A stretch of DNA of 11,214 nucleotides. Source: Chitinophagaceae bacterium. Its GTDB lineage: Bacteria; Bacteroidota; Bacteroidia; Chitinophagales; Chitinophagaceae. Of this stretch, positions 4,310-9,296 are shown piece by piece (position 1 is the first letter of the stretch; each line of letters starts with the position of its first letter). Both the position numbers and the translations under genes were made by a program. The DNA lies in contig DPFD01000152.1 in assembly GCA_003534175.1 (NCBI GenBank), positions 8,587-19,800 of the forward strand. The letters run 5' to 3'. The notes beneath the pieces were generated by a model. That model was not told where the DNA came from. It saw only the letters and a program-made list of their open reading frames with translations, and did not search any database.

Positions 4310-5095
4310 ATGTTCAAAATAACCTGGTTGTGTGTGCTTTCCGTCTTTTTGGGAACGTATGCTAACGCACAGCGTGTTAAAAGAAAAGGCGTGGATCCTA
4401 TCCCCCTGAAACAGCCTCCAACCAAAACCACTACACTCAATGCTTCCCTTTTTAACGGAAAATGGCAGGAAACCCGTAGAATGGATTCTAAGGGAAAGGC
4501 GGTTTCATTTTCAGATACTTTGTATGTGCATTTTTTGCAGCAGGATTCGGTTTCGGTACGATTGGGAAGATCTATGACCATGAAAGGACTGACTCAATTG
4601 GAAGGCAATATCATATCGCTGGCGGGCGATGATTATCAGGTACTAAAACAAACGGCGTCTCAACTCACCCTCGATGATGGGGATTACCGGCGCGTGTTGG
4701 AAAAGACAAATTCCTTTTATTGGGAAGAAGCGGAACGTACCCGGATAAGCCGTAAAGAATACAGCCAGCCTGTTGCTTTGAACGCAGCACACTTTCCCGG
4801 AAAATGGGGAGTGTACCGAACTCAGTCTGCCCCCGGTGAACTCCCAAAGAAACATGAACCATTGCGGTCGCTGTCGGTTGATTCTGTGTGGCACGCCACC
4901 CAATGGTCGGGCACGGCAACTACCGTAGTGCAGGGTAAAAATCAAACCTACTCCGTACAGTTTGAACAAAAAGGCACCGTACTGGCTATTTCCGGAGAGC
5001 AATACAACCAGCAATTCAATGTGCTGGAAAGCAGTGAGAAAGAACTGGTGATAGAACAAAACAACATCAAATACTTTTTTAAGAAACTGAACTGA
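4310..5095 (+). CDS. Secreted protein of unknown function with two lipocalin-like repeats
   Basis: 261 residues. The first 20 (MFKITWLCVLSVFLGTYANA) form a signal peptide with probable cleavage at ANA-Q; there is no lipobox Cys, so it is likely periplasmic or secreted rather than a lipoprotein. A short basic, proline-rich linker follows (22-42). Two copies of one unit come next: about 43-132, starting LNASLFNGKW, and about 157-261, starting LNAAHFPGKW. Both continue with beta-rich sequence and a G-[DE]-x-Y turn (GDDY at 106-109, GEQY at 229-232) leading to a final strand and a basic end (RRVLEK / YFFKK). The F-x-G-K-W opening is typical of lipocalin-like domains that bind small hydrophobic ligands. 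I do not recognise a specific family. A poor promoter-like TTCG-N20-TACCTTAT (4257-4288) precedes it. Confidence 0.7.
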   Translation: MFKITWLCVLSVFLGTYANAQRVKRKGVDPIPLKQPPTKTTTLNASLFNGKWQETRRMDSKGKAVSFSDTLYVHFLQQDSVSVRLGRSMTMKGLTQLEGNIISLAGDDYQVLKQTASQLTLDDGDYRRVLEKTNSFYWEEAERTRISRKEYSQPVALNAAHFPGKWGVYRTQSAPGELPKKHEPLRSLSVDSVWHATQWSGTATTVVQGKNQTYSVQFEQKGTVLAISGEQYNQQFNVLESSEKELVIEQNNIKYFFKKLN

Positions 5096-5132
5096 TGCGA
5101 TGGGTGAGGAGGATAACGCCTGAAAAAAAATG

Positions 5133-5161
5133 TTGATTTAAAAATTTCTGCTTTATATTCA
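5133..5161 (+). promoter_or_regulatory. Candidate promoter of the asnA leader transcript
   Basis: TTG (5133-5135), 18 nt, then TATATTCA (5154-5161), which matches four of six fixed positions of TAnnTTTG. It shares the ten bases GCTTTATATT with the candidate LysE promoter at 892-901. A start near 5167 would give about 27 nt before the first leader peptide and would include both attenuators in the transcript. This is the only plausible promoter I find between the preceding gene and the first leader ORF. Confidence 0.4.
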
Positions 5162-5193
5162 CCATACAAATCAAAAAAAGAATACCGGAACAC

Positions 5194-5262
5194 ATGAACC
5201 ACTCTATGCTCAATAATAATAATAATTTTAACCGGACAACTGTTCTTACAGGGGGCGTATAG
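5194..5262 (+). CDS. asnA leader peptide 1 (22 aa, Asn-rich)
   Basis: A short ORF from ATG 5194 to TAG 5260-5262. It starts M-N-H-S-M-L, then has five consecutive AAT codons (5212-5226), Phe, and another Asn (AAC 5230-5232), then R-T-T-V-L-T-G-G-V. Seven of 22 residues are Asn. Such a run directly before a terminator and an asparagine synthetase gene is the hallmark of a sensor peptide: ribosomes slow when charged tRNA-Asn is scarce. The last codons (ACA GGG GGC GTA) also contain the 5' half of a possible antiterminator (5249-5256). The start is not supported by a Shine-Dalgarno sequence, which is normal here. The peptide itself probably has no function beyond being translated. Confidence 0.82.
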   Translation: MNHSMLNNNNNFNRTTVLTGGV

Positions 5263-5296
5263 CAATTCATCCAACAAAATATTTGAAGCCCGCCTG
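5249..5296 (+). promoter_or_regulatory. Candidate antiterminator 1
   Basis: CAGG (5249-5252) plus GGGC (5253-5256) can pair with GCCC (5288-5291) and CCTG (5293-5296), giving eight base pairs with G5292 bulged. This uses up the 5' arm of terminator 1, so the two structures exclude each other. A ribosome held on the Asn codons (5212-5232) would leave 5249-5256 free, while one at the TAG (5260-5262) would cover it. Pairing is visible by inspection; its use in the cell is inferred. Confidence 0.6.
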
Positions 5297-5315
5297 ATGA
5301 GAGCGGGTTTTTTTA
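5286..5315 (+). terminator. Attenuator terminator 1 of asnA
   Basis: CCCGC (5289-5293) pairs with GCGGG (5303-5307) around a 9-nt loop, extended by a G-T and A-T pairs into the tail, and is followed by seven T's (5308-5314). It begins 26 nt after the leader 1 stop. It shares the 11 bases GCCCGCCTGAT (5288-5298) with terminator 2 but has one fewer G-C pair, so it should be the weaker of the two. Confidence 0.85.
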
Positions 5316-5334
5316 TGTCGATCAACAAACAACC

Positions 5335-5391
5335 ATGCGTACAACACTTCAATATTCAAATAATAATAATAACAATCCGGCATCACCCTGA
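5335..5391 (+). CDS. asnA leader peptide 2 (18 aa, Asn-rich)
   Basis: A second short ORF from ATG 5335 to TGA 5389-5391, encoding M-R-T-T-L-Q-Y-S, six consecutive Asn codons (AAT x4, AAC, AAT at 5359-5376), then P-A-S-P. It begins 20 nt after terminator 1 and 141 nt after the start of leader 1, so the whole module appears duplicated. The Asn reading frame is set independently of leader 1 and again ends about 28 nt before a GC-rich terminator. An overlapping frame from ATG 5315 reads the repeat as Ile and runs into terminator 2, so it is a poorer candidate. Confidence 0.82.
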   Translation: MRTTLQYSNNNNNNPASP

Positions 5392-5427
5392 CAGGCGATC
5401 GTTTTGTTGTAACACAAGGCCCGCCTG
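5392..5427 (+). promoter_or_regulatory. Candidate antiterminator 2
   Basis: CAGGCG (5392-5397), immediately after the leader 2 stop, is perfectly complementary to CGCCTG (5422-5427) in the 5' arm and loop of terminator 2. Between them a small TTGT/ACAA hairpin could form and bring the halves together. A ribosome at the stop codon covers 5392-5397 and permits termination; one waiting on the Asn codons (5359-5376) leaves it exposed. It is shorter than antiterminator 1 but has no bulge. Confidence 0.55.
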
Positions 5428-5445
5428 ATTGGCGGGTTTTTTTAT
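5416..5445 (+). terminator. Attenuator terminator 2 of asnA
   Basis: CCCGCC (5420-5425) pairs with GGCGGG (5431-5436) around the 5-nt loop TGATT and is followed by seven T's (5437-5443). It lies between leader 2 and the asnA start at 5466. A canonical strong terminator placed just upstream of a gene on the same strand must be conditional if the gene is to be expressed from upstream, which supports attenuation. Confidence 0.87.
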
Positions 5446-5465
5446 TCACCACTAAAAAACACATC

Positions 5466-6473
5466 ATGAACACAACAGAAAAACTTCAGACTGAATCAGC
5501 CATTCAATTTGTAAAATCTACTTTTTCCGGGGCGCTGGAAAAAAAACTTAACCTCACCTATGTTTCAGCGCCTATGATTGTGCAGGAACATACCGGAATT
5601 AACGACGATTTAAACGGAGTGGAGCAACCCGTGTCTTTTCCGCTCAGGGCATTGAGCCCTTATCGTGCAGTGGTGGTACATTCGCTGGCCAAATGGAAAC
5701 GGATGCGGTTGAAGGAATATGGTATTGAAGCAGGCAAAGGAATATGGACGGATATGCGCGCCTTGCGGCCGGATGAAGAGTTGTCGCCCCTGCATTCTGT
5801 ATATGTAGATCAGTGGGATTGGGAGAAGCATATCACCGAGCCTGAAAGAACCGTAACCTATCTGCAGGATACGGTGGAGCAGATTTATGAAGCATTGAAG
5901 GAAACCGAAAGGCAAACGGCACTCCGGTATCCATTTGTTACTCCTGTATTGCCCGATCAGATTCATTTTATTCATGCAGAAACGCTATTGCAACAGTATC
6001 CTGGTTTAACAGCGAAAGAACGCGAGGCAGCTATTGCACGTAAATATGGTGCCGTGTTTATTATGGGGATAGGCGGCACTTTATCGAACGGAGAAGCGCA
6101 CGACGGTCGCGCGGCGGATTATGATGATTGGTCAACCCCCACTGAATCAGGACTGCCCGGCTTGAATGGAGATATCATTCTGTGGCATCCGGTGCTGGAG
6201 TGTGCATTCGAAGTGTCATCAATGGGCATTCGTGTGAATCCACTGGCCTTGGTGCGTCAGTTGAAAGAAAAGGATTGCACAGAACGAAGTACATTGCTGT
6301 ATCATAAACAGTTGCTTTCAGGTCAGTTGCCCCAGAGCATGGGAGGAGGAATTGGTCAGTCGAGAATCTGTATGTTTATGCTTCGAAAAAAACACATCGG
6401 AGAAGTGCAGGTAAGCATCTGGCCCGAGGCCATGCGAACAGCTTTACGTGAGGAAGGCGTTTACCTTTTGTAA
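5466..6473 (+). CDS. asnA: Aspartate-ammonia ligase (ammonia-dependent asparagine synthetase)
   Basis: 335 residues, the usual length. AsnA makes asparagine from aspartate, ammonia and ATP via an aspartyl-adenylate; its fold is related to class II aminoacyl-tRNA synthetases. Family blocks visible are SAPMIVQEHTGINDDLNGVE (34-53), SLAKWKRMRLKEYG (73-86), GIGGTLSNGEAHDGRAADYD (201-220) and the class-II-like end SMGGGIGQSRICMFML (291-306). The protein has only seven Asn residues. The start at 5466 follows an A-rich stretch 20 nt after terminator 2. Regulation is very likely by the two leader-peptide attenuators upstream, so expression should rise when charged tRNA-Asn falls. alkB begins 10 nt after the stop and is probably in the same transcript. 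Confidence 0.96.
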   Translation: MNTTEKLQTESAIQFVKSTFSGALEKKLNLTYVSAPMIVQEHTGINDDLNGVEQPVSFPLRALSPYRAVVVHSLAKWKRMRLKEYGIEAGKGIWTDMRALRPDEELSPLHSVYVDQWDWEKHITEPERTVTYLQDTVEQIYEALKETERQTALRYPFVTPVLPDQIHFIHAETLLQQYPGLTAKEREAAIARKYGAVFIMGIGGTLSNGEAHDGRAADYDDWSTPTESGLPGLNGDIILWHPVLECAFEVSSMGIRVNPLALVRQLKEKDCTERSTLLYHKQLLSGQLPQSMGGGIGQSRICMFMLRKKHIGEVQVSIWPEAMRTALREEGVYLL

Positions 6474-6483
6474 GAAAAACCAC

Positions 6484-7068
6484 ATGAATAATCTGTTGCA
6501 CAAAGAGGGGGATGCATACTATTATGGCAGGGTGCTGGATGAAGCTTCTGCCTGGCAATACTATGATGTGTTGTGGAATGAAATTGAGTGGAAACAAGAT
6601 GTGGTGAAGCTTTATGGAAAGGAATGGATTACCCGGCGAAAGACGGCATGGTATGGTGATAACGGTATTGCATATACGTACGGTAAGTTAACAAGGTATG
6701 CATTGCCATGGACGCCCGCCTTGCTGGCACTGAAAGCACTAACAGAAAAAATTACCGGATCAACGTACAATAGTTGCCTGTTGAATTTGTATCATCACGG
6801 AAATGAAGGCATGGGCTGGCATAGCGATGATGAACCCGAAATGAAACGGCATGCCTCTATTGCGTCACTGAGTTTGGGGGCAGCGCGCCGGTTTGATTTT
6901 CGTCACCGAACTACGGGTGAAACCCTTTCAGTTGTACTGGAACATGGCAGTTTACTTGAAATGAAAGGGGTTACGCAACATCACTGGAAACATCAGATGC
7001 CTAAAACAACAAAAGTGCTGCAACCACGCATCAACCTCACTTTCAGAACGGTTGTACCGTTGGTCTGA
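6484..7068 (+). CDS. alkB: AlkB-type 2-oxoglutarate/Fe(II)-dependent DNA or RNA dealkylase
   Basis: 194 residues resembling the ALKBH2/3-like branch. Such enzymes remove methyl groups from 1-methyladenine and 3-methylcytosine by oxidation. The iron ligands are visible as H113-x-D115 in GWHSDDEPEM (111-120) and H170 in HHWKHQMPKT (166-175). The 2-oxoglutarate-binding arginines are in PRINLTFR (R182, R188). NLYHHGNEGMG (101-111) and SIASLSLGAARRFDFRH (125-141) are further family blocks. I chose the ATG at 6484, 10 nt after the asnA stop. The in-frame ATG at 6448 lies inside asnA and would add 12 residues before the natural start. Sharing a transcript with asnA is likely from spacing, but no functional link is obvious. 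Confidence 0.92.
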   Translation: MNNLLHKEGDAYYYGRVLDEASAWQYYDVLWNEIEWKQDVVKLYGKEWITRRKTAWYGDNGIAYTYGKLTRYALPWTPALLALKALTEKITGSTYNSCLLNLYHHGNEGMGWHSDDEPEMKRHASIASLSLGAARRFDFRHRTTGETLSVVLEHGSLLEMKGVTQHHWKHQMPKTTKVLQPRINLTFRTVVPLV

Positions 7069-8479: not shown

Positions 8480-9238
8480 TTATTTCGCGGCTTGCACATC
8501 AGCCCAGTTCTCTCCCCGCTTAATCCGAAGAATCTGCGTTTCAGTTACTTTGAAAATTTTCACCAACTGCTTGATGGGTTTGTTTTCATTCAGTAATTTT
8601 TTGAGCAGCATCACCTTTGTTACGGAGAGTTTGGTGTTTTTATGCGGGGGCGTTAATCTTAATCTTCGCTTGTTGATTTCTGCCTGTACACTCGGACTAT
8701 TCACCCGGTGTTTATGAATTTCTTCTGTTGTCATCCAGCGCAGATTATCTACGCGGTTGTTCAGTTTGTTGTAATCCAGATGCGCGATGATGTTGGCATC
8801 GGGAGAAGGTTTAGGCAGAAAATAGGTAGCTACCAAACGGTGCACCAGTGCATGGTAGTGCATGGTACGACGGGACAGGTCTTTTACAAATGCCTTACTT
8901 AATGCTGCTTTCTTTTCCTCATAAAGTTGTGTGAGGGTATTGATTTCTTCTTCAGAAGCATTTTCTTTCACCAACTGCTTTTTCTTTGCCAGCAGTTGAG
9001 CTACTTCTTTTTGTTCGTTTTTGAATTGTACTTCAAGTTCAGGTTCGCGCGGTTTGTAAAACTTCAGTCGAATAATGCGGTATCCTTCACTCATAGAACC
9101 TTTCATGATACGGCCGCTACCCAGTTTCGTGTACGTACGTATCCTACCCCAGTTCGATACTTCCAATCGGTACTTATTGGTAAACTCAAAATCAAACTCA
9201 ACTTCCTTCCACTGTTCGAGCCAATAACCATTATTCAT
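8480..9238 (-). CDS. Free-standing NUMOD4-HNH nuclease-like protein with coiled-coil insert
   Basis: 252 residues. Residues 7-62 resemble NUMOD4 (WKEVEF at 10-15, YRLEVSNWGRIRTY at 23-36, EGYRIIRLKF at 51-60). Residues about 66-118 are charged and helical (QKEVAQLLAKKKQLVKENAS and following), probably a coiled coil inserted between modules. An HNH_3-type core follows: VHRLVATYFLPKPSPDANII (132-151), AHLDYNKLNNRVDNLRWMT (152-170), with the expected His and Asn residues. The C-terminus (NTKLSVTKVMLLKKLL at 201-216, VTETQILRIKRGENWADV at 231-248) looks like the helix-turn-helix module common in these proteins. NUMOD4-HNH proteins are often homing endonucleases in introns or phages; here no intron, split gene or phage gene adjoins. 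I chose ATG 9238 because ATG 9253 lies upstream of a perfect -7 box. Confidence 0.82.
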   Translation of the reverse strand: MNNGYWLEQWKEVEFDFEFTNKYRLEVSNWGRIRTYTKLGSGRIMKGSMSEGYRIIRLKFYKPREPELEVQFKNEQKEVAQLLAKKKQLVKENASEEEINTLTQLYEEKKAALSKAFVKDLSRRTMHYHALVHRLVATYFLPKPSPDANIIAHLDYNKLNNRVDNLRWMTTEEIHKHRVNSPSVQAEINKRRLRLTPPHKNTKLSVTKVMLLKKLLNENKPIKQLVKIFKVTETQILRIKRGENWADVQAAK

Positions 9239-9242
9239 AAGA

Positions 9243-9250
9243 CAAAGATA
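9243..9250 (-). promoter_or_regulatory. Candidate -7 promoter box of the HNH gene
   Basis: Minus-strand TATCTTTG matches TAnnTTTG exactly and ends 4 nt before the ATG at 9238, so the message would be almost leaderless. The nearest TTTG (9282-9279) is 28 nt away instead of the usual 19-21, which lowers confidence. Confidence 0.4.
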
Positions 9251-9296
9251 CATTTTTTGATATGACCATGCGCATATACAAATAACGAAGAACTTA

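What the first reader, a model, noticed from the sequence alone, without database searches (positions are those of the whole stretch)
5133..5466. Two tandem asparagine-codon leader-peptide attenuators in front of asnA
Seen directly: two short ORFs (5194-5262 and 5335-5391) carry five and six consecutive Asn codons. Each is followed about 26 nt after its stop by a GC-rich hairpin with seven T's (5286-5315 and 5416-5445), and then comes asnA. Known: runs of the regulating amino acid's codons in a leader peptide before a terminator are the signature of ribosome-mediated attenuation (trp, his, leu, phe). Inferred: low charged tRNA-Asn stalls the ribosome and lets transcription pass into asnA. A leader sensing asparagine is unusual in itself, because asnA is better known under AsnC-type repressor control, and a series of two complete modules is rarer still. 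If each module terminates a fraction of transcripts independently, read-through multiplies and the response becomes steeper.
Basis: partly seen in the sequence, partly recalled or inferred. Interest (0 to 1): 0.93.

Follow-up and report, generated by a model that had tools for sequence, protein, structure and literature searches.

The report
Doubled asparagine-sensing switch before asnA
In front of this bacterium's asparagine-making gene asnA lie two modules in a row, each a tiny reading frame packed with asparagine codons followed by a predicted transcription stop hairpin; together they likely act as switches that let the gene be copied only when asparagine runs short, and the same doubled arrangement recurs in several other Bacteroidota lineages.

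Summary
Two short ORFs (5194-5262, 5335-5391) carry runs of 5 and 6 Asn codons; each is followed by a predicted terminator, then asnA (5466). No other five-Asn-codon run exists in the held 2.1 Mb assembly; 0 of 1000 shuffles gave two modules.

Comparison supports the attenuation reading. Of 174 unique asnA loci, 38 have an Asn-rich leader ORF plus terminator (22 of them in one genus), against 1 of 356 other ORFs. A same-genus species keeps both modules while leader peptide 1 is otherwise rewritten. Antiterminator pairings are predicted, though neither window module reaches p 0.05 in the linker test.

I found no paper on an Asn leader. The nearest doubled case, Salmonella mgtCBR, senses two different signals. 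Asn-tRNA sensing, termination and multiplied read-through remain inferred.

The parts
5133..5161 (+). Candidate promoter: TTG (5133-5135), 18 nt, TATATTCA (5154-5161)
   Evidence: Fits the Bacteroidota -33/-7 consensus (recalled, not from a call). A pattern scan finds the -7-like site once in 5100-5200. TATATTCAC is identical in same-genus locus L231. The sigma-70 scan found no + strand site in 4800-6000.
5194..5262 (+). Leader ORF 1, MNHSMLNNNNNFNRTTVLTGGV*, Asn run 5212-5226
   Evidence: Sequence. Counterpart in L231 is MTYLNYYNLNDNGNRNHNRTAGVL*: 7 Asn in each, the rest mostly changed.
5240..5256 (+). Module 1 region 2 (antiterminator 5' strand), overlapping the end of leader ORF 1
   Evidence: Pairs with 5288-5306 in the MFE fold, -25.0 kcal/mol, swallowing the terminator.
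5286..5314 (+). Terminator 1: hairpin 5286-5310 with T tract 5308-5314
   Evidence: Fold -13.5 kcal/mol, z -3.93; terminator scan. GC stem and T tract kept in L231, loop changed.
5335..5391 (+). Leader ORF 2, MRTTLQYSNNNNNNPASP*, Asn run 5359-5376
   Evidence: Sequence. L231 has MHTTIQFSNNNNNTASP*.
5369..5410 (+). Module 2 protector hairpin (1:2): 5369-5375 in the Asn run pairs with TTGTTGT 5404-5410, enclosing region 2
   Evidence: MFE fold of the untranslated state. Asn run to linker pairing p 0.01 against shuffles.
5392..5397 (+). Module 2 region 2, CAGGCG, pairing with CGCCTG in the 5' arm of terminator 2
   Evidence: MFE of the state stalled at the last Asn, -20.1 kcal/mol; pre-region-4 fold. 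Identical in L231.
5416..5443 (+). Terminator 2: hairpin 5416-5440 with T tract 5437-5443
   Evidence: Fold -16.2 kcal/mol, z -3.65; terminator scan, 10 pairs.
5466..6473 (+). asnA, aspartate-ammonia ligase, the gene presumed controlled
   Evidence: PF03590 E 2.6e-99; ORF.

Best explanation
The region 5133-5465 holds two leader-peptide modules in series ahead of asnA, each with an Asn-codon ORF, a predicted antiterminator segment and a predicted intrinsic terminator, and they likely work as two ribosome-mediated transcription attenuators that both respond to scarce charged tRNA-Asn. Steps inferred from anatomy: with ample Asn-tRNA the ribosome reaches the leader's stop codon and covers region 2, so the terminator folds and RNA polymerase stops. 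When Asn-tRNA is scarce the ribosome would stall in the Asn run, leaving region 2 free to pair with the terminator's 5' arm, so transcription would continue. A transcript would have to pass both gates to reach asnA, so read-through would be the product of the two and the induction ratio larger than one gate gives. The two gates are predicted to differ when no ribosome is present: module 1 folds into the antiterminator (reads through), while module 2 hides region 2 in a 1:2 hairpin made with its own Asn codons and terminates.
For: Specificity: 38 of 174 unique asnA loci have a terminator-coupled short ORF with at least 4 Asn in 14 codons. The next amino acid is Leu, 13 of 174; at a threshold of 5 it is Asn 37 and Leu 5. 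Other ORFs of 200+ codons by the same criteria: 1 of 356. Among regions with any terminator it is 38 of 68 against 1 of 68. Conservation: same-genus locus L231 keeps both modules, region 2 segments, both terminators and gene order, while leader peptide 1 is otherwise mostly rewritten. Antiterminator: in 39 of 44 modules tested the linker pairs with the terminator 5' arm at p 0.05 or less against its own shuffles; region 2 begins 5-17 nt after the last Asn codon in 43 of 44. Folds of the window: module 1 stalled -25.0 (antiterminator), at stop -15.2 (terminator); module 2 stalled at the last Asn -20.1 (antiterminator), at stop -16.7 (terminator). Before region 4 is made, all four modules of the window and L231 fold as antiterminators. 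Geometry: gap from leader stop to terminator stem, 45 modules, median 24 nt, quartiles 22-29.
Against: No expression data of any kind. Both window modules miss p 0.05 in the linker-shuffle test (0.113 and 0.077), and the longer leader folds of the window are only mildly better than shuffles (z -1.2 to -2.4). The full fold of L231 module 2 in the stalled state is the terminator, not the antiterminator. A stall on the first Asn codon of module 2 is also predicted to leave the 1:2 hairpin and terminator, so only stalls late in the run would induce. The module 1 antiterminator is so stable that it is predicted whenever region 2 is uncovered, so termination there would depend on a ribosome still sitting at the stop codon. 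136 of 174 asnA loci have no such leader, including the 5 other family members; 22 of the 38 positives are one genus (g114). Ribosome-polymerase coupling in Bacteroidota is assumed.
Confidence: 0.87

Rival explanations
1. The AAT runs are microsatellites made by slippage, and the hairpins are ordinary terminators; there is no regulation.
For: Both runs are mostly AAT (10 of 13 Asn codons in the two leaders). Terminator 1 could also end the upstream gene (4310-5095).
Against: AAYx5 occurs nowhere else in the held assembly. In L231 leader 1 the Asn codons are interspersed, not a repeat. 38 of 174 asnA loci against 1 of 356 other ORFs have the arrangement. Region 2 complementarity would not be expected (39 of 44 modules).
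Confidence: 0.03
2. Nascent-chain arrest: the leader peptides act as sensors inside the ribosome (TnaC-like, recalled), reading free asparagine rather than charged tRNA.
For: Leader 2 peptides of tandem loci often hold PP: 5 of 7 second modules, 0 of 7 first modules, 0 of 31 single. Pro before a stop is known to slow termination (recalled).
Against: A Pro anywhere after the first Asn is not special to second modules (6 of 7, against 3 of 7 first and 21 of 31 single). Peptide sequences differ between lineages and between the window and L231 module 1 apart from Asn content; arrest peptides need specific residues (recalled).
Confidence: 0.04
3. Only one of the two modules is functional; the other is a decaying or neutral duplicate.
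For: 31 of 38 leader-bearing loci have a single module. In the window the two terminator 5' arms share GCCCGCCTGAT, as a duplication would leave.
Against: Both modules are intact in L231 at 83% AsnA identity and in 3 genomes of family f84.
Confidence: 0.12
4. T-box or riboswitch binding tRNA-Asn or asparagine directly.
For: T-boxes for amino acids are common in Firmicutes (recalled; passages of PMC2494555).
Against: No Rfam family at gathering threshold. The permissive scan of 5090-5500 gave 7 sub-threshold matches, the best to the Phe and Trp leader families and none to a T-box.
Confidence: 0.02

Closest known systems
Classical amino-acid leader-peptide attenuators (trp, his, phe, leu; recalled)
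   Same: Short ORF rich in codons of the product amino acid, region 2 after the codon run, terminator with T tract, biosynthetic gene downstream. Weak Rfam matches to Phe_leader and Trp_leader.
   Different: Amino acid is Asn and the gene is asnA; two modules in series; no Rfam family reaches threshold.
Salmonella mgtCBR tandem attenuators (PMC3641672, abstract and section list seen)
   Same: Two leader ORFs and attenuators in one leader RNA.
   Different: There the two respond to different signals (ATP, charged tRNA-Pro), which the abstract calls a singular example. Here both carry Asn runs, so both would read one signal.
Tandem T-boxes and tandem riboswitches (for example B. subtilis thrZ; recalled, the search found nothing)
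   Same: Repeated same-signal elements upstream of one gene.
   Different: Those bind tRNA or metabolite directly; here translation of a leader ORF would be the sensor.
Leader-peptide attenuation suspected in flavobacteria (PMC9723704, passages seen)
   Same: Same phylum; clues of leader-peptide attenuation upstream of amino-acid operons.
   Different: The main text does not mention asnA (0 occurrences); its supplementary tables were not seen.

Membership tests
Ribosome-mediated leader-peptide attenuator | Short translatable ORF with a run of codons for the product amino acid | tested here: met
   Both ORFs; Asn stands out among 20 amino acids over 174 loci. Translation itself not tested.
Ribosome-mediated leader-peptide attenuator | Intrinsic terminator between leader ORF and structural gene | tested here: met
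   Predicted for both modules.
Ribosome-mediated leader-peptide attenuator | Mutually exclusive antiterminator pairing, freed by a stall and covered at the stop codon | tested here: met
   As fold predictions for both window modules at a stall on the last Asn of the run. 39 of 44 modules p 0.05 or less in the linker test, but neither window module; the L231 module 2 full fold goes the other way.
Ribosome-mediated leader-peptide attenuator | 1:2 protector hairpin giving termination without translation | tested here: inconclusive
   Predicted for module 2, not for module 1; 30 of 45 modules p 0.05 or less overall.
Ribosome-mediated leader-peptide attenuator | Conserved arrangement before orthologous genes | tested here: met
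   38 of 174 asnA loci against 1 of 356 other ORFs; L231.
Ribosome-mediated leader-peptide attenuator | Read-through rises on starvation for that amino acid | not testable with these tools
   Needs experiment.
Tandem attenuators (mgtCBR-like) | Two leader ORFs with separate attenuators in one leader RNA | tested here: met
   By sequence and fold; that one RNA spans both is inferred.
Tandem attenuators (mgtCBR-like) | The two modules respond to different signals | tested here: not met
   Judged on codon content alone: both are Asn runs. The response is untested. Not filed as an mgtCBR type.
T-box | Match to the T-box family model | tested here: not met
   No Rfam match at gathering; no T-box in the permissive list.

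The most novel reading that the evidence does not exclude
A serial double gate: two same-signal leader-peptide attenuators in tandem, arrived at or lost several times in Bacteroidota, with a division of labour. Gate 1 closes only if its leader is translated; gate 2 is closed by default because its own Asn codons lock region 2 in a hairpin. The pair multiplies read-through into a steeper, lower-leak switch for asnA, and asnA moves between lineages with its attenuator attached.
Probability: 0.45. Interest if true: 0.82.

Novelty: new variant of a known kind. Interest (0 to 1): 0.72.

Why it matters
If true, it adds asparagine and asnA to the amino acids under leader-peptide attenuation, in a phylum where that mechanism is little tested as far as my searches show. 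It also supplies a natural, recurrent case of two same-signal attenuators in series. That makes an old question testable: whether serial gates raise induction ratio and steepness by multiplication, using single and tandem natural variants of one gene as matched pairs. It also implies that transcription and translation are coupled closely enough in these bacteria for a stalled ribosome to steer RNA polymerase.

Tried and rejected
Early scans read minus-strand loci from the genome search in the wrong orientation and missed leaders there. This was corrected and redone with tblastn placement. The first tree held a misframed duplicate (L142) and is replaced. The first counts (34 of 171 at threshold 5) are replaced. 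One search was made on the set plus L197 and L198, so L161, L231 and L232 are not in it.

asnB-like genes (PF00733, a family that also holds paralogues) in relatives: of 30 loci taken from a longer list of matches, 29 could be examined and 0 had an Asn leader. The other five family members with asnA that one search found (L003-L007) have no Asn leader. In family f11, asnA was found in 230 of 251 genomes; 30 of those loci were kept, and none of the f11 loci is among the leader-bearing ones. In family f84, 2 of 5 asnA loci (L199, L200, with divergent AsnA) have none.

Cross-module pairing (the free 3' arm of terminator 1 with the 5' arm of terminator 2) was considered by eye. It is possible in the window but not general, as the arms differ in L084, L089 and L148 (hairpins).

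A His-run search as a genome control gave one site, with no terminator found in the fetched stretch and not a his leader by eye. No structure prediction was run. Paper searches returned no paper; two returned unrelated ones, judged by listing only.

Full report
WHAT IS THERE. The window (G000:C158, family f1) carries asnA at 5466-6473 (PF03590, E 2.6e-99). Family f1 is Chitinophagaceae by inference: G055 of the same family has a contig of the same length (7,287,640) and asnA position as CP128386.1, titled Chitinophagaceae bacterium DXS. Upstream lie leader ORF 1 (5194-5262, MNHSMLNNNNNFNRTTVLTGGV*), terminator 1 (5286-5314), leader ORF 2 (5335-5391, MRTTLQYSNNNNNNPASP*) and terminator 2 (5416-5443). 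The gaps from stop codon to stem are 23 and 24 nt.

IS IT MORE THAN CHANCE. Five consecutive Asn codons occur nowhere else in the held assembly (65.9% complete). Of 1000 dinucleotide shuffles of 5100-5465, 3 had one Asn module and 0 had two. Asn counts of 7 of 22 and 6 of 18 have P 5e-5 and 1e-4 under the Asn frequency of eleven window genes.

CONSERVATION. Retrieval was capped at 30 or 80 best per call: for example loci for 30 of 67 matching genomes, 30 of 230, and 80 of 592 or more stretches. The fractions below are therefore not prevalence. One search took 192 loci including the window, after I had left out 9: own-genome copies L001, L002 and L147, pattern loci L058-L060 and weak partial hits L164-L166. 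It dropped 3 with short upstream sequence (L068, L099, L103) and 15 duplicates, leaving 174. Of these, 68 have any upstream terminator and 38 have a terminator-coupled short ORF with at least 4 Asn in 14 codons: 31 single and 7 tandem. At the same threshold the next amino acid is Leu with 13; at 5 or more it is Asn 37, Leu 5, Ser 4. Two modules for one amino acid were found for Asn at 7 loci and for Leu at 1. The positives are clustered: 22 are the kept loci of one genus (g114 of family f9, 22 of 22), while 9 of 9 kept loci of genera g261 and g262 of that family have none. The same criteria on 356 other ORFs of 200+ codons in fetched loci gave 1 hit, a Gly-rich stretch. Fisher P for 38 of 174 against 1 of 356 is 6e-19; kinship between loci makes this optimistic.

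THE CLOSEST RELATIVE. In the genus, 3 of 93 genomes have asnA. L231 (AsnA 83% identical) has the same neighbours and both modules. Leader 1 is MTYLNYYNLNDNGNRNHNRTAGVL*, so the number of Asn is kept (7 and 7) while most of the rest differs. Leader 2 is MHTTIQFSNNNNNTASP*. Region 2 segments, terminator stems and the -7-like box are aligned. L232 (AsnA 60%) has one clear module (MINICINNNRTNNNRNNSITKVGIL*) and a possible second. With these two, 40 of 176 loci have a leader and 8 are tandem.

TANDEM PAIRS. They are the window and L231 (one genus), L148 (family f73; the only asnA in 36 genomes of that family), L156, L197 and L198 (family f84; 3 of its 5 asnA loci), L084 (Bacteroidales MAG) and L089 (uncultured Mesonia). 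On an AsnA tree of 43 representatives of the 176 proteins, the tandem label needs 5 changes (4-5 over bootstraps, at least 3 forced by well-supported branches; shuffled mean 7.5). The pairs therefore arose or were lost more than once; the tree does not say which. Its bootstrap had not fully settled. Asn leaders also occur in Hymenobacter; L066 groups with L020 of family f9 (100/99), and L064 carries a leader peptide identical to that of L040 of family f9. This suggests that gene and leader move together.

ANTITERMINATORS. In 44 modules (L161, L231 and L232 not included), the linker between Asn run and terminator pairs with the terminator's 5' arm at p 0.05 or less against its own shuffles in 39. 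The five misses are L019, L089 module 2, L156 module 2 and both window modules (0.113, 0.077). Folding by ribosome position: module 1 stalled gives the antiterminator (-25.0), at the stop the terminator (-15.2). Module 2 stalled at the last Asn gives the antiterminator (-20.1), at the stop the terminator (-16.7), and with no ribosome or a stall at the first Asn a 1:2 hairpin plus terminator. Leader 1 without a ribosome is predicted to read through. Before region 4 is made, all four modules of the window and L231 fold as antiterminators. Against this, the full-length stalled fold of L231 module 2 is the terminator, and module 1 would terminate only while a ribosome still covers region 2. The footprint used (12 nt past the A-site codon start) is an assumption.

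MECHANISM. Shown: the anatomy, its specificity for Asn and asnA, its conservation, and the predicted alternative folds. Inferred: the ribosome stall on scarce Asn-tRNA, escape of RNA polymerase, and multiplication over two gates. I put ribosome-mediated attenuation at 0.87 (lowered from 0.88 on re-reading for module 1) and the functional double gate with division of labour at 0.45.

KNOWN OR NEW. The kind is known (leader-peptide attenuation). Rfam has no family that reaches threshold here; sub-threshold matches are led by Phe_leader and Trp_leader. Searches for an Asn leader or an asnA attenuator in the held open-access library found none (listings only, apart from the papers named next); subscription papers are mostly not held, so this is weak evidence of absence. 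Salmonella mgtCBR (abstract and section list) is the nearest doubled case, with two different signals. Attenuation in flavobacteria has been suspected for amino-acid operons (passages of PMC9723704), and leader-like sORFs noted in Bacteroides thetaiotaomicron (passages of PMC7366714). The Actinobacteria survey PMC1262725 holds no mention of asparagine (find in main text).

Noticed in passing
window 6484-7068: A 2OG-Fe(II) oxygenase (PF13532) starts 10 nt after asnA and may be co-transcribed under the same leader; the order is kept in L231.
   Followed up: partly
window 5359-5391 and second modules of L084, L148, L156, L197, L198: Second-module leaders of tandem loci often hold PP between the Asn run and the stop: 5 of 7, against 0 of 7 first modules and 0 of 31 single; 3 of 7 end in Pro (window, L148, L198). 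A single Pro is not special to them. A pause at the end of the leader would hold the ribosome on region 2. Three of the seven are close kin.
   Followed up: partly
window leaders; 45 modules: Asn runs prefer AAT: 10 AAT, 3 AAC in the two leaders against 71:70 in eleven window genes; over the Asn stretches of 45 modules 249:66. AAT may stall more or pair better with downstream UUGUU segments.
   Followed up: no
L064, L066 upstream of asnA: Hymenobacter asnA genes carry leaders like those of family f9, one identical in peptide, suggesting transfer of asnA with its attenuator; contamination was not excluded.
   Followed up: partly
L022, minus strand, 2385-2453: A genome of the same phylum outside the class (family f36) has a leader with Asn at alternate positions (VNANLNSNLNLNANNNAMTAGG) before asnA; codon density rather than an unbroken run seems to matter.
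   Followed up: partly
window 8480-9253, minus strand: HNH endonuclease with NUMOD4 motif between ordinary genes, possibly a mobile homing-type gene.
   Followed up: no
L232, oriented 1392-1475: A second short ORF (MTNNNPSLHCGNTNPVF...) with a weak hairpin and T tract lies between the clear module and asnA; it may be a degenerate or incipient second module.
   Followed up: no
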